A DNA stretch of 64,000 bases. Source: Streptomyces asiaticus. Its GTDB lineage: Bacteria; Actinomycetota; Actinomycetes; Streptomycetales; Streptomycetaceae. The stretch is from contig NZ_JAGSHX010000006.1 of the NCBI RefSeq assembly GCF_018138715.1, forward strand, positions 1,116,001-1,180,000. The letters are read 5' to 3'. Within the stretch, counting starts at the first letter, position 1. Every line of letters begins with the position of its first letter. A program made the translations under genes and the position numbers. Positions 15,945 to 27,659 of this stretch are shown here, piece by piece. The notes beneath the pieces were generated by a model that ran no database searches, was not told where the DNA came from, and was given only the letters and a program-made list of their open reading frames with translations.

Positions 15945-17222
15945 TCATACGGGTGCGGAGGTCCCAACGAGGACCGACTCCACATCAGGGGCCCATCCCA
16001 GCAGCCGCTCGTCCGCTCCCGGCCGGGCCACGCACTGAACGCCCAGCGGCAGCGAGTTGGCCGCCCGGCCCGCGGGCAGCGCCAGAGCGGGGGCTCCCGC
16101 GTAGCTCCAGGGGAGGCTCATCACGGAGTTGCCGGTGCTCTCCAGGCCGTACGGGGCGGGGCCGGTGGCCGCCGGGGTGATCCACAGATCGATGCCGTCC
16201 CGGTCCATGGCGGCCACCAGCCGCTCGCGGAAGCCGGCACGGGCGCGCAGGGCCGCGGCGTACGCGTCGTGGCTCATCCGCTGCCCCTCCCGGATCGCCT
16301 CGACGGTCTGCTCGCGGTACCGCTCGCCATGGCGCGGGAACCATACGGCGTGGGACCGCGCCAGCTCATAACGGTTGATCACCCGCTGCTCCGCCACGAC
16401 CCGTTCGAAGTCGTCCGGGAAGGGCACCCGGCGGACCGTGAACCCGGCGGCCGCCAGATGTCCGGCCCACTCCGCGAAGGATTTCCTGGCCTCGGCGTCG
16501 GCGCGGTCGAGGTACGGCCCGAGCGGAACGCCGAGCACCGGCCGCCGCCCCGCCGCCGCCTCCCCGCCCTCGCCGGACGGCCGCCATCCGTCGCACAGCA
16601 CGGCCGCCGCCGGGGCCAGGGTCGCCACGTCGGCGGCGAAGAGGCCCACGGTGTCGAAGGTCGGCGCGTTGGGGATCACACCGTCGGAGGGGATGCGCCC
16701 GTGGGTCGGCTTGAAGCCGAGGACCCCGCAGTAGGCCGCCGGGCGGATCATCGAACCGATCGTCTGGGTCCCGACGGCCAGCGGCACCATCCCCGCCGCC
16801 ACGGCCGCCGCCGAACCACTGCTGGAGCCGCCCGGGGTGTGGCCGAGATGGTGCGGATTGCGGGTGGGCCCGGGAGCGGTCACGGCGAACTCGGCGGTCA
16901 CGGTCTTGCCCGCCACCAACGCCCCCGCCTCCCGCAGCCGTCCGACGAGCGACGCCTCCGCCCCGGCCAGCACCTCGGCGGGAACGTCCGACCCGGCACC
17001 CGTGGGCACCCCCTCGACATGCACGATGTCCTTCACGCCCACCATGACCCCGTACAGCGGCGGCCGCCCGTCCACATCCCCCCACCGCTCATCCGCCACC
17101 CGCGCCGCACGCGCCAACCGCTCCCGCCGCCCGGGCTCGGGCACAAAGGCCAGGATCTCCCCGTCCTCAGCCTCGATCCGGTCACAGGTCCGCATGGCCG
17201 CGACGGCGCAAGAGGTCTCCAT
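15945..17222 (-). CDS. Amidase (amidase signature family)
   Basis: Amide hydrolase of 425 residues. It has the Ser-cisSer-Lys arrangement: Lys in VGVKDIVH, and the Gly/Ser-rich signature GGSSSGSAAAVAAG with the following TQTIGSMIRPA carrying the nucleophile region. Family members act on small amides; GatA is unlikely without gatB/gatC neighbours and because the protein is short. Monocistronic in appearance, with its start facing the left inverted repeat at 17300. Confidence 0.88.
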   Translation of the reverse strand: METSCAVAAMRTCDRIEAEDGEILAFVPEPGRRERLARAARVADERWGDVDGRPPLYGVMVGVKDIVHVEGVPTGAGSDVPAEVLAGAEASLVGRLREAGALVAGKTVTAEFAVTAPGPTRNPHHLGHTPGGSSSGSAAAVAAGMVPLAVGTQTIGSMIRPAAYCGVLGFKPTHGRIPSDGVIPNAPTFDTVGLFAADVATLAPAAAVLCDGWRPSGEGGEAAAGRRPVLGVPLGPYLDRADAEARKSFAEWAGHLAAAGFTVRRVPFPDDFERVVAEQRVINRYELARSHAVWFPRHGERYREQTVEAIREGQRMSHDAYAAALRARAGFRERLVAAMDRDGIDLWITPAATGPAPYGLESTGNSVMSLPWSYAGAPALALPAGRAANSLPLGVQCVARPGADERLLGWAPDVESVLVGTSAPV

Positions 17223-17299
17223 GAACCGAGGCTACGCGGCGCACCGCGCTCCCGTACGGCCCGGCGAACCGGTCCGGTCGGCATGGCCCCGGCCCGAGC

Positions 17300-17421
17300 C
17301 GGCCTGTAGTGCGCTGGCACCAGGACACCTGAGTGGCTGGTCCGGGCGCACCAGGGGAAGACGGCGGCGGGAGACGATGCCCGGCGGGGCGCCGGAGGGA
17401 AGTGTTGGAGGCGCGTGAATC
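17300..17421 (+). repeat. Left copy of the 122-bp inverted repeat
   Basis: These 122 bases recur in inverse orientation at 24520-24641 with 118 identities and no gap. The copy ends at the MMPL transporter start region. It contains a near-palindrome (CCAGGACACCTGA here, perfect CCAGGACACCTGG in the right copy), the hairpin CCGGCG-GGG-CGCCGG, and the start of a 13-codon ORF. It probably carries the promoter and leader of the operon that follows. Confidence 0.9.
17377..17418 (+). CDS. Candidate 13-residue leader peptide
   Basis: ATG opens MPGGAPEGSVGGA then TGA. The stop overlaps a GTG (GTGA at 17415-17418) that is in frame with the MMPL transporter. GGGAG lies three bases upstream. In the right repeat copy the same peptide lacks this stop. 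Translation is unproven. Confidence 0.4.
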   Translation: MPGGAPEGSVGGA

Positions 17422-17465
17422 CCCGCGCGTTCCCCTTGCCCAGCGGTGTCTGGAGTGATCAACAG

Positions 17466-19721
17466 GTGGCGACATTTCTTTACCGGATCGGACGGTGGGC
17501 CTTCCGGCGGCGTCGGCTCGTCGGGGGTCTGTGGCTGGGCGTCCTGGTGCTGGCCATCGCCGCGGCCGCCATGGCGCCGGAGGGGAAGGAAGAGGACCTC
17601 TCCATGCCCGGCACCGAGTCGCAGAAGGCGTTCGACCTGCTGGACGAGCGCTTCCCCCAGAGCAACTCCCAGGCCGCCGAGGCCCGTTTGGTGTTCCGGG
17701 CCCCGGACGGGCAGCGGATGACGGCCAGGGAGAACAAGGCGGCCGTCGAGGACGCGCTCGGCTCGCTGGAGGGGGGCGATCAGGTCGCGTCGGTCGCCGA
17801 CCCTTATGAGGACGACGCCGTCAGCGAGGACGGCACCATCGCCTACTCCACGATCACCTACACCGCGGGCGCCGTCGATCTGACCGAGTCGACGAAGAGC
17901 GCCCTCGAGGACGCCGCGAGCCAGGCCCGGGGCGCCGGGCTGACCGTGGAGATCGGCGGCTCGGCCCTGGACGCGGAAGAGGAGCCGGGCGGTACGACGG
18001 AGATCATCGGCGTGGCGGTGGCCGCGGTGGTGCTGGTCCTCGCCCTCGGGTCGCTGGCCGCGGCCGGATTGTCGCTGCTGACCGCCTTCGTGGGCGTGGC
18101 CATCGCCTTCGGCCTGGTCTCCGCGCTGGCCGTGCCGCTGGGCCTGACGTCCACCGTCGCCATCCTGGCGCTGATGCTGGGGCTGGCGGTCGGCGTCGAC
18201 TACGCGCTCTTCATCACCTCCCGCTACCGCGACGAGCGCGCCCGGGGCAGCGAGCCGGAGGAGGCCGCCGGCCGGGCGGTGGGCACGGCCGGATCCGCCG
18301 TCGTCTTCGCCGGCGCGACCGTCTTCATCGCCCTGGTCGGCCTTGGGGTCGTCGGAATCCCCGAACTCACCAAGATGGGCATGGGCGGCGCGGGCGCCGT
18401 GGCCCTCGCCGTACTCGTCGCGCTGACCCTGGTCCCGGCGCTGTTCGGCTTCTTCGGCCGCCGGGTACTGTCCCGCGCCGTCCGCAAGGCACCCGCGTAT
18501 CGCGGGTCGGGAAGCGAGCGCCCGCACCGGCAGCCCATCGCGGCAACCCCGGCGAAGGGCCTGGGCACCCGCTGGGCGCGGTTCGTGCTGCGCCGGCCGG
18601 TGGCCGTGCTGTTGACCGCAGGACTCGGCCTCGGCGCCGTCGCCCTGCCGGCGCTGAGCCTCGAACTCGGGCTGCCCGGGGACGAGTCCAAGTCGGTGGA
18701 GACCACCCAGCGCCGCGCCTACGACCTGCTGTCGGAAGGCTTCGGCCCCGGCTTCAACGGCCCGTTGACCGTGGTGGTGGACACCTCGGAGTCCGGGAAC
18801 ACCCAGGCCACCACGAACCTGGTCGTCAAGACCGTACGGGGAGTGGACGGGGTCGCGTCGGTCGGTGATCCGGTTCTCAGCCGTACCAAGGACACGGCCG
18901 TCCTCACCGCCGTCCCGCGGACCGCGCCGAACAGCGGCGAGACCAAGGACCTGGTGCACGCGATCCGGGGCGCGGTCTCCGGTGTCGAGGCCGACACGGG
19001 CGCCGCCATCCTGGTGACCGGAACCACCGCGATGAACATCGACATCTCCGAAGCCATGTCCGACGCCCTCGTCCCCTATCTGACCGTGGTCATCGGCCTG
19101 GCGGTGCTCCTGCTGATGGTGGTCTTCCGCTCGGTCCTGGTCCCGGTCAAGGCCGCGCTCGGCTTCCTGCTGTCGGTGGGTGCCGCCTTCGGCGTGCTCG
19201 TCGCCGTCTTCCAGTGGGGCTGGGCGGCGGACCTGATCGGCATCGAGCAGACCGGACCGGTCATGTCGCTGATGCCGATTCTCATCATCGGCATCGTGTT
19301 CGGCCTCGCCATGGATTACGAGGTCTTCCTCTTCACCCGGGTGCGGGAGGCCCACGTCCATGGCGCGTCCCCCGGCGAGGCGGTGGTCAGCGGTTTCCGG
19401 CACAGCGGACGTGTGGTGGCCGCGGCGGCGATCATCATGATCAGCGTGTTCGCCGGATTCATCGGGATGAGCAGCCCGACCATCCAGACGATGGGCGTCG
19501 GCCTGGCCGCCGCCGTCGCCTTCGACGCCTTCGTGGTCCGGATGGCGATCGCACCCGCGGTCCTTGCGCTGCTCGGCCACCGGGCCTGGTGGCTGCCTCG
19601 TATCCTGAACCGTGTGCTGCCGAACGTGGACATCGAGGGCGAGAAACTGAGCAGGCATGCCCCGGCCTCCATGACCGCGCCGGACACGGCGGTGCCGCGG
19701 CTCCCCGTCGGCCGGGACTGA
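17466..19721 (+). CDS. MMPL family RND transporter
   Basis: Polytopic membrane exporter of 751 residues, twelve predicted segments in two halves, each with an MMPL domain. Proton-relay-type motifs are present in both halves (LGLAVGVDYALFITSRYRDE and FGLAMDYEVFLFTR). GTG 17466 fits the family N-terminus (ATFLYRIGRWAFRRRR) and has GGAG ten bases upstream. GTG 17415 would add 17 residues and overlap the leader stop. First of three genes with a kinase and response regulator; MMPL pumps export lipids or drugs, the substrate here being unknown. Confidence 0.9.
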   Translation: MATFLYRIGRWAFRRRRLVGGLWLGVLVLAIAAAAMAPEGKEEDLSMPGTESQKAFDLLDERFPQSNSQAAEARLVFRAPDGQRMTARENKAAVEDALGSLEGGDQVASVADPYEDDAVSEDGTIAYSTITYTAGAVDLTESTKSALEDAASQARGAGLTVEIGGSALDAEEEPGGTTEIIGVAVAAVVLVLALGSLAAAGLSLLTAFVGVAIAFGLVSALAVPLGLTSTVAILALMLGLAVGVDYALFITSRYRDERARGSEPEEAAGRAVGTAGSAVVFAGATVFIALVGLGVVGIPELTKMGMGGAGAVALAVLVALTLVPALFGFFGRRVLSRAVRKAPAYRGSGSERPHRQPIAATPAKGLGTRWARFVLRRPVAVLLTAGLGLGAVALPALSLELGLPGDESKSVETTQRRAYDLLSEGFGPGFNGPLTVVVDTSESGNTQATTNLVVKTVRGVDGVASVGDPVLSRTKDTAVLTAVPRTAPNSGETKDLVHAIRGAVSGVEADTGAAILVTGTTAMNIDISEAMSDALVPYLTVVIGLAVLLLMVVFRSVLVPVKAALGFLLSVGAAFGVLVAVFQWGWAADLIGIEQTGPVMSLMPILIIGIVFGLAMDYEVFLFTRVREAHVHGASPGEAVVSGFRHSGRVVAAAAIIMISVFAGFIGMSSPTIQTMGVGLAAAVAFDAFVVRMAIAPAVLALLGHRAWWLPRILNRVLPNVDIEGEKLSRHAPASMTAPDTAVPRLPVGRD

Positions 19722-19728
19722 GCCGGCC

Positions 19729-21126
19729 ATGACGAACTCGGGTGGCGGTGGCCCGCGGCCACGGGGCACCTGGTGGCGGGAGGGCGCGCTCACGGCGACG
19801 GCGTTCGCGCTCTGTCTGCTCGGCGGCGTGGTGCAGGAGGACGGCCGCACACTGTCATGGCCGCCCGCCGCCGCCTACTTCATCGCCGTGGTGTCCTGTG
19901 CCGTGCTGCCGGTGCGGCACCGGGCGCCGCTGGCCGCCATGGCGGCCACGACCGCGGCCGGGGTGCTGGTGCCGTTCCTGGGCGTTCTGCTGAGCCCGCT
20001 CATCGTGGCACCCGCCGTGATCACCGCCTACTCGCTCACCGCGCGCACCGAACGGCACGCGGTGAGCGCGGTGTCGCTCACCTCCGTGGCGCTGCTGGTC
20101 GCCTCCACCCCCTTGTTCGGGGCCCTCTCGTGGAAGGACGCGAGCAGGGTGGGGGCGGTGGCGGCGTTCCCGCTGGTGGCCGGCGTGCTCGGACACTCGA
20201 CGCAGAACCGGCGGGCCTACCTGGCGGCCGTGGAGGAGCGGGCCCGGCGGGCCGAGAAGACCCGGGACAGCGAGGCGCGCCGGAGAGTGGCCGAGGAACG
20301 GGTGCGCATCGCCCGGGAACTGCACGACCTCGTGGCCCATCAGATCACCCTGGCCAACGCGCAGGCCTCGGTCGCCGCCCATCTCTTCGACACCCGCCCG
20401 GAGCAGACCCGCAAGAGCCTGAAGGAGCTCGTCGAGACCACCGGCGACGCGCTCGACGAACTGCGGGCCACGGTCGGTCTGCTGCGTCAGTCCGGGGACG
20501 CGGCCGCGCCCGACGAACCGGCGCCCGGGCTGTCCCGGCTTCCCACGCTCCTCGAGTCCTTCCGCCGCGCGGGTCTGGAGGTTTCGGTGCACCAGGAGGG
20601 CACGGCCAGGCCGCTGCCGCCGGGGGTGGACCTCACCGCCTACCGCATCGTCCAGGAGGCCCTGACCAACGTGACCAAGCACGCCGGTACCGGTAGCGCC
20701 CGGGTGCGCCTGGTCTGGAACCGCGATCGCGTGACCATCACCGTCGCCGACGACGGAGGGGGCGCCCGTACGGCGCCGACCGCGGCCACGGGGCCCAGTG
20801 CGGTCACGGGACCGCGTACGGCCACGGGGCGGAGTACGGCCACGGGGCGGAGTACGGCCACGGGACCGCGTACGGCCACGGGGCCGGACCGTCCGCCCGG
20901 TTACGGTCTGATCGGGATGCGGGAACGTGCCACCGCGGTCGGGGGACACCTCTCCGCGGGCAGGCGCCCGGAGGGTGGCTTCCTCGTCTCCACCCAGCTG
21001 CCCCTCCCGCCCGCCAAGGACACGGTGCGGCGGACCGACGGAGCAACGCCCCTCGAGGACCGGATGGCTGACGGGGCGACAGACGGCGGTCGGACGGGCG
21101 GCGGAGAGGCCGGGGATGCGCCATGA
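19729..21126 (+). CDS. Two-component sensor histidine kinase (NarL-partner type)
   Basis: Membrane kinase of 465 residues with about four to five N-terminal membrane segments and no clear extracellular domain, so it probably senses within or near the membrane. The HisKA_3 dimerisation motif carries His199 (RIARELHDLVAHQ); the ATPase has the N-box EALTNVTKHA and GYGLIGMRER. Between DDGGG (341-345) and GYG (391) a repeat-encoded Thr/Gly/Arg insertion fills the ATP lid. It starts 7 bp after the transporter gene and its stop overlaps the regulator start (ATGA). Confidence 0.92.
   Translation: MTNSGGGGPRPRGTWWREGALTATAFALCLLGGVVQEDGRTLSWPPAAAYFIAVVSCAVLPVRHRAPLAAMAATTAAGVLVPFLGVLLSPLIVAPAVITAYSLTARTERHAVSAVSLTSVALLVASTPLFGALSWKDASRVGAVAAFPLVAGVLGHSTQNRRAYLAAVEERARRAEKTRDSEARRRVAEERVRIARELHDLVAHQITLANAQASVAAHLFDTRPEQTRKSLKELVETTGDALDELRATVGLLRQSGDAAAPDEPAPGLSRLPTLLESFRRAGLEVSVHQEGTARPLPPGVDLTAYRIVQEALTNVTKHAGTGSARVRLVWNRDRVTITVADDGGGARTAPTAATGPSAVTGPRTATGRSTATGRSTATGPRTATGPDRPPGYGLIGMRERATAVGGHLSAGRRPEGGFLVSTQLPLPPAKDTVRRTDGATPLEDRMADGATDGGRTGGGEAGDAP
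20784..20891 (+). repeat. 18-bp in-frame tandem repeat, six copies
   Basis: Six units of GGCCACGGGRCSNVGTRC type encode repeats such as TATGRS and TATGPR. They lie exactly in the ATP-lid region of the histidine kinase. Confidence 0.9.
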
Positions 21127-21815
21127 CGCTGCGGGTGCTGCTCGCCGACGATCAGGCCCTGCTCCGCGGTGCCTTCCGGTTGCTTCTCGACAGTGCCGAC
21201 GACATCACCGTGGTCGGCGAGGCCGCCGACGGCAGGGAGGCGGTGAGACTCACCCGGGAGCTGCGCCCGGACGTGGTGATCATGGACATCCGGATGCCCG
21301 AGGTGGACGGTCTCACCGCCACGTCGGAGATCTGCGCGGACCCGGAACTGCGGGCCAGCCGCATCCTGATCCTCACCACGTACGAGACCGACGAGTACGT
21401 CGCCCAGGCGCTGCGCGCGGGGGCCGGAGGCTTCATCGGCAAGGGCATCGGGGCGGAGGACCTGCTGGACGCCGTGCGTACGATCGCCGGCGGCGACACT
21501 CTTCTGTCCCCCGCCGCCACCCGCTCCCTGGTCGCCCGTTTCCTGGCCACACCGGACCACACCCCGCGGCACCGCCCCGAACAGCTCGCCGTGCTCACCC
21601 CGCGTGAACGCGAGATGGTCGCCCTGGTCGCGACCGGCCTGTCCAACCAGGAGATCGCCGAGCGGATGTTCCTCAGCCCCTTCACCGTCCGCGCCCATGT
21701 GCAGCGCGCCATGACGAAGCTGGAGGCCCGCGACCGGGCGCAACTCGTCGTCATCGCCTACCAGACGGGCCTGGTCCGCGCCGCCCCCGAGGGCGGCACG
21801 GACCGCCTGTCGTAG
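21123..21815 (+). CDS. NarL/FixJ family response regulator
   Basis: Response regulator of 230 residues. The receiver domain has phospho-acceptor Asp55 (VVIMDIRMPEVDG) and conserved Lys in GFIGKG. The C-terminal LuxR-type HTH is LTPREREMVALVATGLSNQEIAERM. Coupled to the kinase by an ATGA overlap. It ends only five bases from the end of the convergent monooxygenase gene. The duplicated upstream sequence of both operons is a plausible target. Confidence 0.94.
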   Translation: MTLRVLLADDQALLRGAFRLLLDSADDITVVGEAADGREAVRLTRELRPDVVIMDIRMPEVDGLTATSEICADPELRASRILILTTYETDEYVAQALRAGAGGFIGKGIGAEDLLDAVRTIAGGDTLLSPAATRSLVARFLATPDHTPRHRPEQLAVLTPREREMVALVATGLSNQEIAERMFLSPFTVRAHVQRAMTKLEARDRAQLVVIAYQTGLVRAAPEGGTDRLS

Positions 21816-21820
21816 TCGAG

Positions 21821-23011
21821 TCACGGCATCGGGGCGAACTCGGGCAGCGTAAGGGCCGAGTGGGCCGGTCGTGGCGTCGCGGAGGGCAAGGTGACGAGGC
21901 CACGCAGCATGGTGTTGCGTTGCTCCAGGGCCCGCGCCGTGGTGGGGAAGAGCCTGGCCCCACCGTTGTCGACCAGTGCCTGGTTCATGGCGACGAACTC
22001 ACGGACGTCGCGTTCGTAGGCGGCGAAGGCCGCGGTGTGGTCCCGGTTGGTGGCCAGGGCGTTGGCGAGCACATAGGCACCGACCAGCGCGAGGCTCGAG
22101 CCTTGTCCGGTGAGGAACGAGGGTGCGTACGCGGCGTCGCCGACGAGCGCCACGCGGCCGCTGGACCAGTGGGGCATGCGGATCTGGCCGGCCGTGTCGA
22201 AGAACAGGTCATCCGCGTCGCGCATGGCGCCGACCATGCCGGGGACCTCCCATCCCGCGCCCGCGAAGACCGCGGCGACCAGGTCCCGCTGGGCCTCGGG
22301 GTTCCGGAGGGCGTCGATCGGCGGTTCCGGTTGGTGGAAGGTCAGGAAGGCGTGCAGCTCGTCGTCGTCCCCGACGGCGTAGAGGGCCGCGGCTCTCCCC
22401 GGGGTGTTCCACATCATGACCTCACGGGAGAGCCCGAAGGTGTTCGGCATGGTGAAGATGGCGAAGCAGTAGCCGAGGTAGCGGTGGAACCGCTCTTCGG
22501 GGCCGAACACGGACTCCCGGGTCTGTGAGTGCATGCCGTCGGCGCCGACCACCAGGTCGAACGTGCGCCGTCGCCCACTGTGGAACGTGACGTCGACCCC
22601 GTGTCCGGACTGGTCGAGGGTGTCGATGGAGTCGTCGAACAGGAACTCCACGTCGTCGCGGACGCTTCCGTACAGGGCCGTGGCCAGATCGCCACGACGC
22701 ACCTCCAGGTCCTGTCCCTCGACACCGCCTGCGACGGCCGACGGGCTGAGCGAGGCCACTTCGCTGCCATCGGCGTCGAGGAAGGTGCAGCGACGCGAGT
22801 CGACGTGCGCGTCCCGCAGCCGCGGCAGTATCCCCATCCGCCGGACCACCTCTGTCGCGGTACCGCGGATGTCGATGGGGTAACCACCGTCGCGCAGCGC
22901 GCCTGCCTTCTCCACCACCGTGACCGCGAATCCGGACCGGTGCAGCCAGTACGCCAGCGCGGGTCCGGAGATACTGGCCCCGGAGATCAGAACTTCGCCG
23001 GTAGGTGTCAT
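21821..23011 (-). CDS. FAD-dependent monooxygenase (PHBH fold, TetX/Rox-like)
   Basis: Flavoprotein hydroxylase of 396 residues. The FAD-binding N-terminus is modified to ISGASISGPALAYWL; the ribityl-binding motif is RVALVGDAAYAPSFLTGQG. The family hydroxylates aromatic compounds and includes enzymes that inactivate tetracyclines and rifamycins. The ATG at 23011 overlaps the MFS stop (ATGA), which sets the start. Being coupled behind an exporter suggests detoxification or tailoring of the exported compound; substrate unknown. Confidence 0.9.
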   Translation of the reverse strand: MTPTGEVLISGASISGPALAYWLHRSGFAVTVVEKAGALRDGGYPIDIRGTATEVVRRMGILPRLRDAHVDSRRCTFLDADGSEVASLSPSAVAGGVEGQDLEVRRGDLATALYGSVRDDVEFLFDDSIDTLDQSGHGVDVTFHSGRRRTFDLVVGADGMHSQTRESVFGPEERFHRYLGYCFAIFTMPNTFGLSREVMMWNTPGRAAALYAVGDDDELHAFLTFHQPEPPIDALRNPEAQRDLVAAVFAGAGWEVPGMVGAMRDADDLFFDTAGQIRMPHWSSGRVALVGDAAYAPSFLTGQGSSLALVGAYVLANALATNRDHTAAFAAYERDVREFVAMNQALVDNGGARLFPTTARALEQRNTMLRGLVTLPSATPRPAHSALTLPEFAPMP

Positions 23012-24435
23012 GCCTGAGCTTCCTTCTTCGTGATACGGACGACGAGCAGGGACAGTGCGGCAACGAGGCCGGCGACGGCGAACCCTGTGACGAAGGCCGA
23101 TTCGGCAGGCAGGCCCGTCTTCGGGTCGGCCCCGGCGTCGAGGATCGCGGCGGCGATCTGGACGCCCAGGGCGATGCCGATCACGCGTGTCACCACGAGC
23201 ACGCTGGTGGCGATGCCGGTGTCCTTGGTCTCGACGGCGCCGGCGGCGCTGGTGAGCAACGCCGTGGTACCCGCGCCCGCGGCCATCGCGGCCAGCGCCT
23301 TCGCGAGGACGAGCTGCCATTCCGCGGTGTGCAGCGACACCAGGGCGACCATCGTGGCCGCCGTGACGACGGCGCCCACGATGACCACGGCACGCAGCCC
23401 GAAACGCCGTGCCGTGATCCCGCCGACGGAATCGCTCACCGCCCCGGCGATGGCGCCGGGGAGAAGGAACAGTCCGATGTCGGTGGTGTCGGCTCCGAAG
23501 CCGTACCCGTCGCCCTCCACCCCGAACAGCTGCGGGAGCAGAAAGCTCACCATTCCGAAACTGGTGGTGATGACGATGGTGAGCATGCACGCGTGCCACA
23601 TCGCGGGCTTCGCCAGCATGCGGAGATCGACCATCGGCGAGGCGGCCCGGCGCTCGACGACGACCCATCCGGTCGCGAGGGCCGCCACGGCCACCGCGAG
23701 GGCGCCGACCGCGAGTGGCGGCAGGCCGTCGTCGCCGGTCACCCGCACGAGCCCGAGCATGAACGCGAGCAACGTACCGCTCAGCAGAACCACGCCCGGC
23801 CAGTCGAACCTGTACTCCGATTCGATCGGCGGATCATGCGGCATCAACCGGGCCACGACCAACGTCATCGCGATGATCACGATCGTCGGCAGCGCGAACA
23901 TCCAATGCCAGGAGAGTCCTTCCGCGATCGGCCCGGCGGTCAGCGTTCCCACCATGCCGCCACCCGTGAACAGCGCCATGACCAGCCCCATCCCCAGCTG
24001 TGACTCGCCTGCCGGGAGGTGTTTGCGCACCAGGATGAAGGAAAGGGGCAGCGCACCCACCATGGCGCCCTGCAATACCTGACCGAGCAACAACACCGGC
24101 AGATTCGGCGCCAGACCGGCCAGCAGACCACCGGCCGAGACCACCGCCATCAGCCGGACCAGCACCCGCTTTCCGCCGTAGCGGTCGCCGAGTTTGCCTG
24201 CGACGGGTGCGATGGCGGCGCCGGTGATGAGCACCGCGTTGGAGACCAGCGCCCCTTCGCCGGAGCTGACTCCCAGCTCACGTTGGAGCAGTGGGAGCGC
24301 GGGATCCACCACGGTCTGAAGGGTGCCGAGGGCGAGTGCCAAGATGCCGAGGGCACCGATCGACAGCCTCCCGACGCGGACCGGGGACGGGGATGGGGAC
24401 GGGGACGGGGACGGGGAAACCACAGCTTGGGACAT
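23008..24435 (-). CDS. MFS transporter (DHA2/14-TMS drug efflux type)
   Basis: Membrane exporter of 475 residues with about fourteen predicted segments; motif A-like GKLGDRYGGKRVL lies after the second segment. The N-terminal tail holds (PS)n from a hexanucleotide repeat. ATG 24435 has AAGGGA upstream; the frame is open back to an ATG at 24564 inside the right 122-bp repeat, which would give a 518-residue form beginning with the shared leader. Cotranscribed with the monooxygenase. Confidence 0.9.
   Translation of the reverse strand: MSQAVVSPSPSPSPSPSPVRVGRLSIGALGILALALGTLQTVVDPALPLLQRELGVSSGEGALVSNAVLITGAAIAPVAGKLGDRYGGKRVLVRLMAVVSAGGLLAGLAPNLPVLLLGQVLQGAMVGALPLSFILVRKHLPAGESQLGMGLVMALFTGGGMVGTLTAGPIAEGLSWHWMFALPTIVIIAMTLVVARLMPHDPPIESEYRFDWPGVVLLSGTLLAFMLGLVRVTGDDGLPPLAVGALAVAVAALATGWVVVERRAASPMVDLRMLAKPAMWHACMLTIVITTSFGMVSFLLPQLFGVEGDGYGFGADTTDIGLFLLPGAIAGAVSDSVGGITARRFGLRAVVIVGAVVTAATMVALVSLHTAEWQLVLAKALAAMAAGAGTTALLTSAAGAVETKDTGIATSVLVVTRVIGIALGVQIAAAILDAGADPKTGLPAESAFVTGFAVAGLVAALSLLVVRITKKEAQA
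24383..24417 (-). repeat. Hexanucleotide microsatellite (GGGGAC)n
   Basis: About six units of GGGGAC on the plus strand encode a Pro-Ser repeat at the N-terminus of the MFS transporter. Slippage would add or remove PS pairs without changing frame. Confidence 0.85.
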
Positions 24436-24444
24436 AGCGTCCCT

Positions 24445-24498
24445 TTCATCGTTGGTTGCGGGTTCATCGTTGGTCGCGAGCAGGTGCGTGAACCTGCT
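24445..24498. promoter_or_regulatory. Operator-like repeats before the MFS gene
   Basis: Two direct repeats, TTCATCGTTGGTTGCG (24445-24460) and TTCATCGTTGGTCGCG (24463-24478), are followed by an inverted repeat AGCAGGT-N6-ACCTGCT (24479-24498). They sit between the right 122-bp repeat and the MFS start and are absent from the left copy, so they could give this operon separate control. Confidence 0.5.
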
Positions 24499-24519
24499 TG
24501 ATGTGTGCGCGATGCGCGA

Positions 24520-24641
24520 GATTCGCGCGCCTCCAACACTTCCCTCCGGCGCCCCGCCGGGCATCGTCCCCCGCCGCCGTCTTCCCCTGGTGCGCCCGGA
24601 CCAGCCACCCAGGTGTCCTGGTGCCTGCGCACTACAGGCCG
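24520..24641 (-). repeat. Right copy of the 122-bp inverted repeat
   Basis: Inverse copy of 17300-17421, four substitutions. Read on the minus strand it heads toward the MFS/monooxygenase operon just as the left copy heads toward the MMPL operon. One substitution turns the TGA of the 13-codon leader into CGA, opening the frame into the MFS gene. On its outer side it abuts the deleted serine hydrolase. Confidence 0.9.
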
Positions 24642-24665
24642 CCCCGAGCCGGCCGGCCGGAGGGT

Positions 24666-25304
24666 GTGTTTGCCACGGGAGGGAGAGACCGCGAGGTGAT
24701 CGGGCCGCTGCTGAACGGGGACGGGCCCGGTGGTGTGGTCGTGCGGCGCGGCGGGGTGCTCGCCCGCTGGGGCGATCCGGGCCGGGTGGAGATGGCCTTC
24801 AGCGCGACCAAGAGCGTGCCGGCCCTCGTCGCGGGCATCGCCTTCGACGACGGACTGCTGCGGCTGGACGAACCCGATTGCGGCTCCGTGGAGCACGGCT
24901 ACGACAACGCGTTCGCGGACATCGGCGGCGTCCGCGTTCCCGTGGTGTCCGGTGGCGCCCACCGGGGCGGCGGGCTGCGGATCAGCGCGCTCGACCTGGC
25001 CCGTATCGGCCGGCTCTGCCTGAGCGGTGGGGAGTGGGCCGGGCGCCGGATCGTGTCACGGTGCTGGATCGAGGCATTGTGGACACCGTGTGCCGTCAAG
25101 CCGGAGTACGGGCTGACGTGGTGGCTCAACGACGGCCGCGTGGTGTGGCCACAGGCCCCGTCGACCGGGCGCTGCGCCCGGGGCAACGGCGGCAATCACC
25201 TCTTGTGGGTGGACCCGGCCCGTGATCTCACCCTCGTCTCACGCTGGGGTGCCGATGTGGAAGCCCTCGTCGCGGCGGTCTCGGAGGCGGTCCGCCCCTG
25301 CTGA
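24666..25304 (+). pseudogene. Serine hydrolase (beta-lactamase/PBP-like), internally deleted
   Basis: About 210 codons matching a Streptomyces class C beta-lactamase-like hydrolase. The N-terminal part keeps the SATKS (SxxK) nucleophile motif, then jumps from LRLDEPDCGSVE straight to HGYDNAFADIGG. From what I know of the family, roughly 100 residues containing the Tyr motif should lie between. The C-terminal part (GLTWWLND, GGNHLLWVDP) is intact in frame. The 5' end begins next to the right inverted repeat. No frameshift is seen, so a protein may be made but should be inactive. Confidence 0.6.
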
Positions 25305-25346
25305 TGACACCGGCGAGCACACCGCTCAGCGGGCTTCCACATCGGC
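25251..25346. repeat. 16-bp inverted repeat across the hydrolase end
   Basis: GCCGATGTGGAAGCCC (25251-25266) and its exact complement (25331-25346) flank 64 bases including the stop codon. It could form a long-looped hairpin between the convergent hydrolase remnant and GH16 genes. Confidence 0.6.
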
Positions 25347-25354
25347 CGTGGGCG

Positions 25355-26215
25355 TCAGCTGCCGCCCGTCACCTTGACGTAGTCGACGACCAGCTGCTGC
25401 GGGAAGGAGGTGTTGCCGTCCGGGTCACCGGGCCAGTCACCGCCGACGGCCAGGTTGAGGATGATGTAGAAGGGGTGGTCGAAGACCCAGCGGTTGCCGT
25501 TGAGGTCCGAGGGCGTGCGGGTCTGGTAGACGTTGCCGTCGACGGACCAGGTGATCTTGTTCGGCGACCAGTCGATGGCGAAGGTGTGGAAGTCGTCGGA
25601 GAACTTGCCGCCATTGGGCAGGGTGTAGCCGGCGCCGATGCCGCCCGAGCCGGAGTAGCCGGGGCCGTGGATGGTGCCGTGGACGGTGCTGGGCTCGAAG
25701 CCCACGTTCTCCATGATGTCTATCTCGCCGCAGTTGGGCCAGCCCGCGCTGCCGATGTCGCTGCCGAGCATCCAGAAGGCGGGCCACATGCCCTGGCCCT
25801 GCGGCAGCTTCATCCGGGCCTCGACATGGCCGGAGGCCGTGGTGAACTTCTGGGAGGTGTTGAGGCGGGCGGAGGTGTACTCACATTGGCCGTACCAGCA
25901 GTTGTAGTTGGCCGGGTTCTCCTTGCGGGCGGTGATGACGAGGTTGCCGTTGCCGTCCAGCGCCGCGTTCTTGTTGCCGTCGGTGTAGAACTGCCGCTCG
26001 TGGTTGTTGACGTTGTCACCGGTCTCCAGGCCCCACTTGGAGCCGTCGACCGCGCTGCCCGCCGCGCCGTCGAAGTTGTCGGTGAACTCGGCCGCGGCGG
26101 CTTTGGTATGGGGGGTGTCCGTGGTGGCCGTGGCCGGTGCGGTGAGCCAGGGAGTGGCGGCGAGCGCGGTCGCGGAGAGCAGACCGATCACGGTGTTGCG
26201 CAGCGTACTTCTCAT
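25355..26215 (-). CDS. Secreted GH16 endo-beta-1,3-glucanase (laminarinase)
   Basis: Secreted glycosidase of 286 residues with a Sec signal peptide (about 1-31, ending ATA). The single GH16 domain has the catalytic motif EIDIMEN (nucleophile Glu164, Asp166, acid/base Glu169). It lacks a carbohydrate-binding module. It would cut beta-1,3-glucans of fungal or plant walls. It lies directly downstream of a ROK regulator (about 100 bp), which may control it. Confidence 0.93.
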   Translation of the reverse strand: MRSTLRNTVIGLLSATALAATPWLTAPATATTDTPHTKAAAAEFTDNFDGAAGSAVDGSKWGLETGDNVNNHERQFYTDGNKNAALDGNGNLVITARKENPANYNCWYGQCEYTSARLNTSQKFTTASGHVEARMKLPQGQGMWPAFWMLGSDIGSAGWPNCGEIDIMENVGFEPSTVHGTIHGPGYSGSGGIGAGYTLPNGGKFSDDFHTFAIDWSPNKITWSVDGNVYQTRTPSDLNGNRWVFDHPFYIILNLAVGGDWPGDPDGNTSFPQQLVVDYVKVTGGS

Positions 26216-26315: not shown

Positions 26316-27659
26316 CTACGACACGGGCATACGCGTGGTGGGGGCCACGCGCGTCGGCGCTCCTCGCGGGGTGGTGGCTGGGCGACAGACGGGAGGGGGG
26401 CGCGTCGGCGCTCCTTGAGGGGCGGTGGCCGGGCGACAGATGGGAGGAGGGCGCGTCAGCGCTCCTTGAGGGGTGGTGGCCGGGTGGCGGGCGGGACGGT
26501 GCGCGCCCTCGGTCAGGAAGTGGCGGACGGGCAGGGCGGCGGCGCCGAGCGCCACGGCGTGGGGGCCGAGCCCGCACAGCCCGATGTCGGTCTGCGCGTA
26601 GGGTCTGCGCAGCGCTTGCGCGGCCACCGTCTCGCGGATCCGCGGCAGCATACGGGCGCCGAACATCAGCCCGGCCCAGCCGCCGAGGATGATCCGCTGG
26701 GGGTTGAAGAGATTGACGAGATTGGCGATTCCGGCGGCCAAGTACACCGCCGCCTCCTCCAGGACGCGCTGTGCGGCCGACGAGGTGTCGGCGGCCGCGA
26801 GCAGCGCGGCGAACGCGGACTCGTCGTCGGCGCCGGGGGTGACACGGCCGCGCCGGGCCCGGCGGTAGCGCTCCAGGACCGCCTCGGCCCCGACGTACGC
26901 CTCCAGGCAGCCGCGCGCGCCGCACCGGCAGCGGCGGCCCCCGGCCTGGACGGTGGTGTGGCCCCACTCGCCCGCGCTGTCGGTGGCGCCCCGGTAGGGG
27001 GAGCCGTGGGTGATGACGCTCGCGGAGACGCCGGAGCCGATGAGCGCGACGACGCCGTGCTGGACGCCACGGCCCGCGCCGAACCACATCTCGGCCCGGC
27101 CCAGGGCCTCCGCGCCGTTGTCGATGTGCAGGGGCAGCGCGGTGCCGGTGCGCAGCATCCGTTCCAGGGGGACGCCGTCCCAGCCGGTGGCCGAAACGCC
27201 GACGCCGACGCCCAGGATGTGCCCGTGGGGGATCCCGGCTTCCTCGATGACGGCGTCCAGGAAGGTCAGGATGTGGCGGACGGCGGTCTCGGCGCCGTGC
27301 TCAGGGGAGGGACCGGAGGGTAACGGGTGGACGGCTCCGGCCCGTTGGGTGAGGGCGAGGTCGAACAGCCCGACCCGGACCCGGGCATCGGCGACCTCGA
27401 CGCCGATGACGTACCGGTGCCCGGCGGCCGGCCGCAGCCGGTGGGATTCCGCCTCTTCCGTGACGACGCCTTCGGCGATCAGTTCGCCGATCACCGCGCT
27501 CACGGTGGTGGCGCCGAGCCCCGTACGGTTGATGAGCTCCTGGCGGCTGAGCGGAGCGTGCAGATACAGCGTCCACAGCAGCGAGGAGCGGCCGCCGTGC
27601 CGCGGATCGCGCACGGTGGTGCGCAGCGAGGGCTGGGCTGTCCGCGCCTTGGCCGTCAT
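26316..27659 (-). CDS. ROK family transcriptional regulator with repeat tail
   Basis: Regulator of 447 residues: N-terminal winged HTH (SRQELINRTGLGATTVSAVI), ROK domain with GEWGH and the zinc motif CRCGARGCLEAY. After the normal end near residue 390 it continues for about 55 residues of Pro/Thr/Arg-rich sequence created by a 51-bp tandem repeat. It resembles the neighbouring ROK protein closely in the C-terminal half (NLFNPQRIILGGWAGL), so the two are paralogues. Probable sugar-sensing control of GH16 or transport genes elsewhere. Confidence 0.9.
   Translation of the reverse strand: MTAKARTAQPSLRTTVRDPRHGGRSSLLWTLYLHAPLSRQELINRTGLGATTVSAVIGELIAEGVVTEEAESHRLRPAAGHRYVIGVEVADARVRVGLFDLALTQRAGAVHPLPSGPSPEHGAETAVRHILTFLDAVIEEAGIPHGHILGVGVGVSATGWDGVPLERMLRTGTALPLHIDNGAEALGRAEMWFGAGRGVQHGVVALIGSGVSASVITHGSPYRGATDSAGEWGHTTVQAGGRRCRCGARGCLEAYVGAEAVLERYRRARRGRVTPGADDESAFAALLAAADTSSAAQRVLEEAAVYLAAGIANLVNLFNPQRIILGGWAGLMFGARMLPRIRETVAAQALRRPYAQTDIGLCGLGPHAVALGAAALPVRHFLTEGAHRPARHPATTPQGALTRPPPICRPATAPQGAPTRPPPVCRPATTPRGAPTRVAPTTRMPVS
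26350..26502. repeat. 51-bp in-frame tandem repeat, three copies
   Basis: Units start at 26350, 26401 and 26452 (each CGCGTCRGCG...). They encode 17-residue repeats of the GAPTRPPPVCRPATT kind at the C-terminus of the ROK protein. Confidence 0.85.

What the first reader, a model, noticed from the sequence alone, without database searches (positions are those of the whole stretch)
17300..24641. Two efflux operons enclosed by a 122-bp, 97% identical inverted repeat
17300-17421 recurs inverted at 24520-24641 with 118/122 identities and no gaps, and ends sharply at both edges. Each copy lies upstream of and points into a different operon: MMPL + kinase + regulator on one side, MFS + FAD monooxygenase on the other. 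The operons converge with a 5-bp gap. There is no transposase or integrase. Either a shared control element was duplicated so one signal drives both, or the repeats can invert the 7.1-kb core by recombination. Efflux, a drug-type monooxygenase and their own two-component system in one bounded block looks like an unnamed resistance or export module.
Basis: partly seen in the sequence, partly recalled or inferred. Interest (0 to 1): 0.78.

Follow-up and report, generated by a model that had tools for sequence, protein, structure and literature searches.

The report
Twin promoters kept alike by recombination
The 122-base inverted repeat is a duplicated promoter and leader that very probably lets one two-component sensor drive two facing export operons in soil bacteria (Streptomyces), and its two copies are repeatedly overwritten to match each other, so the pair looks freshly copied although the arrangement is old.

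Summary
The repeat is as reported: 118/122 identities, no gaps, arms facing into two convergent operons 5 bp apart. It is not a scattered repeat: the genome holds two copies. In 392 same-genus genomes it tracks the module's response regulator: found in 44 of 45 genomes with the regulator and 10 of 347 without; the 45th has it on closer inspection. A pattern of its two palindromes hits 102 places in public genomes: 97 directly before MMPL, kinase or MFS homologues, 3 between the same kinase and an ABC transporter, 2 cut off. So it is best read as operator, promoter and leader of this NarL-type two-component system. The MFS copy derives from the MMPL copy: 9 of 41 MFS-side copies still carry MMPL 5' coding sequence. 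Across 25 genomes with both copies, concerted site patterns outnumber orthologous ones 2538 to 306, most strongly in the presumed leader: gene conversion is the best reading. Crossed flanks, a sign of core inversion, appear in 1 of 59 flank matches; inversion could not switch either operon (inference). Regulator binding, inducer and substrates are untested.

The parts
   Evidence: conservation over 66 aligned copies rises sharply at 17306-17307
24520..24652 (-). element copy B (promoter/leader before MFS-FMO)
17307..17322 (+). dyad 1, TRGTGCnnnnGCACCA, candidate response-regulator site (copy B: 24619-24634)
   Evidence: nearly invariant arms, no compensatory change
17337..17354 (+). dyad 2, CTGGTCCnnnnGCACCAG, candidate response-regulator site, centre 31 bp from dyad 1 (copy B: 24587-24604)
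   Evidence: also in the Virgisporangium and Oceanitalea copies
17373..17378 (+). putative -10 box (G/A/C)ACGAT; the ACGAT begins after 19 nt following GCACCAG in the window and in the Virgisporangium and Oceanitalea copies (inferred function; no sigma-70 consensus found)
   Evidence: negative
17407..17434 (+). leader hairpin just before the MMPL ribosome-binding site
   Evidence: mean fold z -2.6 over 66 copies; 17 cells with a change on both sides against 6.4 in shuffles
17466..19721 (+). MMPL-family RND transporter, 751 aa (likely start GTG 17466)
   Evidence: Pfam PF03176 (on the longer frame from 17415); nearest solved chains MmpL3
19729..21126 (+). HisKA_3 sensor histidine kinase
21123..21815 (+). 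NarL/LuxR-type response regulator
   Evidence: nearest solved chain VraR
21821..23014 (-). FAD-dependent monooxygenase, nearest solved chain Tet(55)
23008..24435 (-). MFS (DHA2/EmrB-like) transporter
   Evidence: (longer frame to 24564)

Best explanation
The repeat is the cis-regulatory promoter and leader of an autoregulated NarL-type two-component system. Phosphorylated regulator is inferred to bind two dyads 31 bp apart (about three helical turns), the proximal one near -40, and to activate a promoter whose -10 box is (G/A/C)ACGAT at 17373-17378. The original copy drives MMPL-kinase-regulator. A duplicate, carried over with the 5' end of the MMPL gene, was placed before the convergent MFS-monooxygenase operon, so one signal induces both exporters and the oxygenase. 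Gene conversion between the inverted copies keeps overwriting one with the other, so they evolve in concert. Shown here by sequence: close association with the regulator, origin from MMPL, concerted evolution, hairpin covariation. Inferred: regulator binding, activation rather than repression, transcription start, gene conversion as the mechanism, inducer, substrates.
For: Not a scattered repeat: two copies in the own genome. Association: of 102 double-dyad matches in public genomes 97 are upstream of MMPL, HK or MFS homologues of the module; 3 lie between a divergent HK homologue and an ABC transporter ATPase gene; 2 are cut by the locus end. Co-occurrence with the regulator: 44 of 45 against 10 of 347 (Fisher 2.7e-47); the 45th has it at 76% identity. 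Layout: of the 40 loci fetched first, 24 have two inverted copies, one on each side of a convergent pair; the two with MFS-FMO collinear behind the regulator (G140, G221) show one. Origin: 9 of 41 MFS-side copies keep MMPL 5' coding sequence; 8 frames could be read and five of them end in (D/G)ER plus one residue. Concerted evolution: within-genome identity 83.9% against 75.7% across genomes, maximum of 10,000 permutations 79.1%; quartet sites 2538 concerted, 306 orthologous, 227 crossed, 285 of 300 genome pairs concerted; 200 partner permutations reach at most 1228; flank control 616/581/513. G341: copies identical over about 377 bp, stopping abruptly.
Against: No binding, start-site or expression data. 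No sigma-70-type promoter consensus at 17200-17500, so the -10 assignment rests on conserved sequence and spacing alone. A single dyad is at chance level in the own genome (23 matches against 23 for the reversed control), so no wider regulon is seen. Element matches without the regulator exist (10 of 347, three with E below 1e-10), as do plasmid orphans. The layout rule has exceptions: G017 and G061 have a convergent MFS-FMO with only the MFS-side copy detected, G183 a convergent FMO with only the MMPL-side copy. In only 7 of 25 genomes is each copy the other's best match among the 66; in the rest some copy elsewhere is closer to at least one of them. In the closest genome pairs (n=9) orthologous sites exceed concerted ones, so conversion is not continuous. 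The 300 pairs are not independent.
Confidence: 0.78

Rival explanations
1. Similarity between the copies is kept by selection alone: both must match the same regulator (and leader function), so they co-evolve without gene conversion.
For: The dyads are almost invariant in the 66 copies and shared regulator specificity would push both copies the same way; concerted sites also exceed orthologous ones inside the dyads (454 to 89).
Against: The concerted excess is largest outside the dyads, in the presumed leader 17385-17420 (1080 concerted against 72 orthologous), and is marked in the least conserved columns (67% within against 46% across genomes). G341 is identical through an MMPL coding remnant with no evident operator role.
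Confidence: 0.17
2. Recombinational switch: the arms invert the 7.1-kb core to change expression.
For: Arms are long and nearly identical; one species pair (L255 and L256) shares the left flank in the same strand with the core reversed.
Against: 58 of 59 flank matches keep their side; the exceptional pair shares only one flank, so independent insertion is not excluded. Crossover inside the arms leaves each operon with a complete element (inference). No recombinase among the 8 proteins scanned.
Confidence: 0.03
3. Miniature mobile element or insertion-sequence remnant that happened to land twice.
For: Sharp edges, inverted orientation, 122 bp.
Against: Two copies only in 11.88 Mb; 97 of 102 pattern matches sit before the same genes.
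Confidence: 0.01
4. The conserved leader is chiefly a structured regulatory RNA (attenuator or ligand-sensing leader); the dyads are secondary.
For: A hairpin before the RBS has compensatory changes and folds better than shuffles (mean z -2.6); the dyad stretch and the whole leader also fold somewhat better than shuffles (mean z -1.4 and -1.5), though palindromes do so anyway. Conservation runs up to the start codon.
Against: No Rfam family at its threshold; the only listed hit is mir-486, outside the leader. In dyad 1 the pair 17308/17321 is A-C in 32 of 66 copies and in dyad 2 17342/17349 is C-C in 60 of 66, so the dyads are not kept as an RNA helix. In the own MFS copy the outer 3' strand of the hairpin is replaced, although an inner stem can still form. 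Both arms of the window fold no better than shuffles (z -0.03, +1.00). No terminator-like site.
Confidence: 0.1

Closest known systems
AbrA1/A2 of Streptomyces coelicolor (PMC4193843; passages seen)
   Same: Two-component system in one operon with a drug-type exporter; positive autoregulation of the operon promoter reported there.
   Different: One operon with an ABC exporter; the passages I saw mention no second, duplicated promoter on a facing operon. Homology to our kinase and regulator was not tested.
VraSR / MadRS / LiaRS-type envelope-stress systems (roles recalled, except MadRS, whose abstract start is in the listing)
   Same: HisKA_3 kinase plus NarL-type regulator here; VraR is the nearest solved regulator chain.
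   Different: The NCBIfam scores shown stay below their cut-offs (MadS 87/500, MadR 138/300, NarL 144/250, LiaS 43/450, best 25 of 97 families listed for the regulator).
Tetracycline destructases Tet(55), Tet(50) (PDB 5tul, 5tue)
   Same: Nearest solved relatives of the FAD enzyme (252 and 222 bits).
   Different: Subfamily cut-off not met (260 against 550); substrate unknown.
MmpL3 and other MMPL exporters
   Same: MMPL family; MmpL3 nearest solved chain.
   Different: Far below the MmpL3 cut-off (182 against 1400).

Membership tests
Autoregulated two-component/exporter operon | Kinase and regulator genes adjacent to an exporter gene | tested here: met
Autoregulated two-component/exporter operon | Conserved operator-like site before the operon, co-inherited with the regulator | tested here: met
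   44 of 45 against 10 of 347; 45th found
Autoregulated two-component/exporter operon | Regulator binds and activates its own promoter | not testable with these tools
   needs EMSA/footprint and reporter
Invertible (phase-variable) segment | Both orientations found between the same flanks | tested here: inconclusive
   1 of 59 flank matches crossed, one-sided
Invertible (phase-variable) segment | Dedicated recombinase nearby | tested here: not met
   none among the 8 proteins scanned; wider surroundings not scanned
Invertible (phase-variable) segment | Inversion changes which gene has a promoter | tested here: not met
   both arms carry the dyads and the ACGAT motif; promoter function itself inferred
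MITE or insertion-sequence repeat | Multiple copies at unrelated sites | tested here: not met
Known structured RNA family (Rfam 15) | Match at the family's gathering score | tested here: not met
   one listed hit over 16500-25500, mir-486 at 23 bits against 69
Tetracycline destructase (NF033476) | Score at or above curated cut-off | tested here: not met
   259.9 against 550
Tetracycline destructase (NF033476) | Oxidises tetracyclines | not testable with these tools
   needs enzyme assay
MmpL3 (NF052608) | Score at or above curated cut-off | tested here: not met
   182 against 1400

The most novel reading that the evidence does not exclude
A two-operon regulon whose duplicated promoter-leader, including a structured leader RNA with its own regulatory role, is actively held identical by gene conversion favoured by the inverted, convergent layout; the palindromic arrangement is selected because it lets the regulator's two targets co-evolve as one.
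Probability: 0.15. Interest if true: 0.68.

Novelty: new variant of a known kind. Interest (0 to 1): 0.5.

Why it matters
It would be a clear bacterial case of concerted evolution of promoters rather than genes: a duplicated regulatory sequence homogenised in many genomes of one genus, with the origin (MMPL to MFS) and a fresh conversion tract readable in living genomes. It also predicts the operator of a conserved actinobacterial two-component system (regulator relatives with 83% or more identity in Nocardia, Gordonia, Nocardioides and other genera) and links an MMPL pump, an MFS pump and a Tet(55)-like oxygenase to one signal, which makes their shared inducer findable by a simple reporter screen.

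Tried and rejected
Single-dyad search for a wider regulon: 23 matches in the own genome against 23 for the reversed control, so nothing. Rfam: nothing at threshold. Folding each whole arm: z -0.03 and +1.00. Small upstream ORF from ATG 17377 (13 codons): its stop differs between copies (seen by eye) and the ATG overlaps the presumed -10 box; not pursued. Class-wide pattern search with 2 mismatches: 10 of 394 genomes, some of the matches chance-like by eye. tblastx flank-swap test was too loose (weak matches under 75 bits on both kinds of side) and was replaced. RNAalifold gave a second weak helix (columns 34-55 and inwards) without changes on both sides, not used. Seven paper searches listed no paper that, from titles and abstract starts, describes this module or repeat; two searches listed only 10 of 54 and 12 of 377 papers, and only CC-licensed PMC is held. 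PMC7516205 (passages) concerns a PrrAB-like system, not this one.

Rows dropped and limits: of the 53 other genomes with a match, 39 were fetched at first; 14 were not (G037, G061, G075, G138, G179, G200, G292, G305, G321, G324, G337, G348, G351, G369), five of which came later with G183. One search scored at most two candidates per genome, so third copies there cannot be excluded, and it missed the copy in G183. In one search matches above 99.5% identity were dropped as the same genome held twice, but genomes held in both collections still count twice against others: the 59 matches form 16 clusters of flanks, 15 of one side and 1 mixed. The table printed 80 of 101 loci; organism names of the other 21 were not seen. 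One search's printed list was cut. One search holds 57 sequences, MMPL/kinase-side only. That the window is a Streptomyces is my inference: same-genus contigs equal named Streptomyces records in length.

Full report
The two arms match at 118 of 122 positions without gaps and lie upstream of, and point into, two operons that converge with 5 bp between them. The genome shows no further copy apart from one 30-nt match at E 0.009. The MMPL start is better placed at GTG 17466, after a conserved ribosome-binding site, so the repeat is non-coding (inference from conservation).

What it is. I searched 392 same-genus genomes with the 133-bp arm: 54, the own one included, have a match at E 1e-4 or better, many with two copies facing each other about 7 kb apart. 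I fetched 40 loci from 39 of the other 53. In 24 genomes besides the window there are two inverted copies, one before MMPL (or the kinase, where MMPL is lost or cut) and one before MFS. Where MFS-FMO follows the regulator in the same direction (G140, G221) one copy was found. Exceptions: G017 and G061 have a convergent MFS-FMO but only the MFS-side copy was detected, and G183 has a convergent FMO with only the MMPL-side copy. A pattern built from the two dyads gave 101 stretches of public genomes with 102 matches: 97 are upstream of MMPL, kinase or MFS homologues of this module, 2 are cut off by the locus end, and 3 (Virgisporangium twice, Oceanitalea) lie between a divergent homologue of the same kinase (60-63%), with a regulator 82-84% identical, and a gene for an ABC transporter ATPase. 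The exporter changes, the kinase-regulator pair and the element stay: this argues that the element belongs to the two-component system. The reverse test agrees: regulator orthologues (E 1e-95 or better) occur in 45 of 392 genomes, the element in 44 of these and in 10 of the 347 others; the 45th, G183, carries it at 76% identity. Of the 10, G176 has an MMPL remnant, G305 a paralogous module with a regulator 66% identical, G333 a paralogous kinase-regulator pair; seven are matches with E from 2.7e-7 to 9.3e-5, of which only G348 was looked at, with no module gene in 16 kb.

Anatomy. Over 66 aligned copies, information content rises sharply at 17306-17307 and stays high, with variable gaps, to the MMPL start. 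Two dyads, TRGTGCnnnnGCACCA and CTGGTCCnnnnGCACCAG, have centres 31 bp apart. Their arms hardly vary; the most variable pair (17308/17321) is A-C in 32, G-C in 26, G-T in 4, A-T in 2 and C-C in 2 of 66 copies, and 17342/17349 is C-C in 60, so this looks like a DNA site, not an RNA helix. The motif ACGAT begins after 19 nt following the last GCACCAG in the window and in the Virgisporangium and Oceanitalea copies. If it is part of the -10 box, dyad 2 is centred near -40 and dyad 1 near -71, the layout of an activator site overlapping -35 (inference; one search finds no sigma-70 consensus). Downstream, a hairpin (17407-17434) folds better than shuffles (mean z -2.6 over 66 copies) and in 57 MMPL/kinase-side copies shows 17 cells with changes on both sides against 6.4 in shuffles, 0 of 500 reaching it; two of the five measures were not exceptional (59 and 58 of 500).

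Origin and evolution. In 9 of 41 MFS-side copies the element is followed by MMPL-like coding sequence; 8 of these frames could be read and five end in (D/G)ER plus one residue, a common junction. So the MFS leader was copied from the MMPL leader, most simply once (inference). Yet the copies in one genome resemble each other more than expected: 83.9% within against 75.7% across genomes, and quartet sites 2538 concerted, 306 orthologous, 227 crossed, with 285 of 300 genome pairs on the concerted side, 8 on the other and 7 ties. Shuffled partners give at most 1228 concerted sites in 200 trials, and the upstream flank shows little effect (616/581/513). The excess is greatest in 17385-17420 (1080 to 72), outside the dyads (454 to 89). 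In G341 the two copies are identical over about 377 bp, including the MMPL remnant, and then unrelated. Gene conversion explains this better than selection alone. Results on the other side: in only 7 of 25 genomes is each copy the other's best match among the 66, and in the nine closest genome pairs orthologous sites exceed concerted ones (3.67 to 1.89 on average, G027-G131 alone giving 16 to 1), so conversion is episodic.

Inversion. Comparing 140 flanks gave 58 same-side matches and one crossed, in 16 clusters. The crossed pair (S. cavernae, L255, and L256) shares 928 bp of left flank at 84.7% in the same strand with the core reversed; the right flanks gave no match. A rare evolutionary inversion is possible; a switch is not supported, because each operon keeps its element whichever way the core lies (inference).

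Function. The signal and substrates are unknown. The regulator is closest to VraR among solved chains and the FAD enzyme to Tet(55), but family cut-offs are not met. Two linear Streptomyces plasmids carry orphan elements: one before an MFS gene 67% identical to ours beside a 60% identical monooxygenase, the other with no module gene in 18 kb. The nearest studied analogue that I saw is AbrA1/A2, a two-component/ABC operon with positive autoregulation (PMC4193843, passages).

Verdict. The parts are of known kinds (autoregulated two-component system, exporters, flavin oxygenase). What is unusual is the duplicated promoter-leader, arranged as an inverted pair and evolving in concert across many genomes of a genus.

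Noticed in passing
window 20770-20895: 18-nt tandem repeats inside the kinase gene, in the linker before GYGLIGM (probably the ATP lid, recalled); this linker varies from 9 to 45 residues in the loci where it could be read.
   Followed up: partly
window 24660-25304: Serine hydrolase (beta-lactamase family) frame matching only the C-terminal part of the Pfam profile and below its cut-off, right behind copy B; perhaps a truncated gene.
   Followed up: no
window 26349-26450: 51-bp tandem duplication (88%) inside the C-terminal part of a long reverse-strand frame (26316-27659).
   Followed up: no
window 24360-24435: MFS N-terminus begins with a run of Ser-Pro repeats (SPSPSPSPSP), a likely slippage site.
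   Followed up: no
L057 (G252, second place): A second element copy at 8.5 Mb followed by a decayed MMPL gene, convergent with a paralogous kinase-regulator pair (38% and 54%).
   Followed up: no
L257 and L258 (plasmids NZ_CP108387.1, NZ_CP016082.1): Orphan elements on linear plasmids; in L258 before an MFS gene with a weak MMPL-like remnant (18 aa, E 0.02), in L257 with no module gene in 18 kb.
   Followed up: partly
L244 (G305): A paralogous MMPL-kinase-regulator set (60%, 43%, 66%) with a weak element (74% over 76 nt), suggesting a wider family of such promoters.
   Followed up: no
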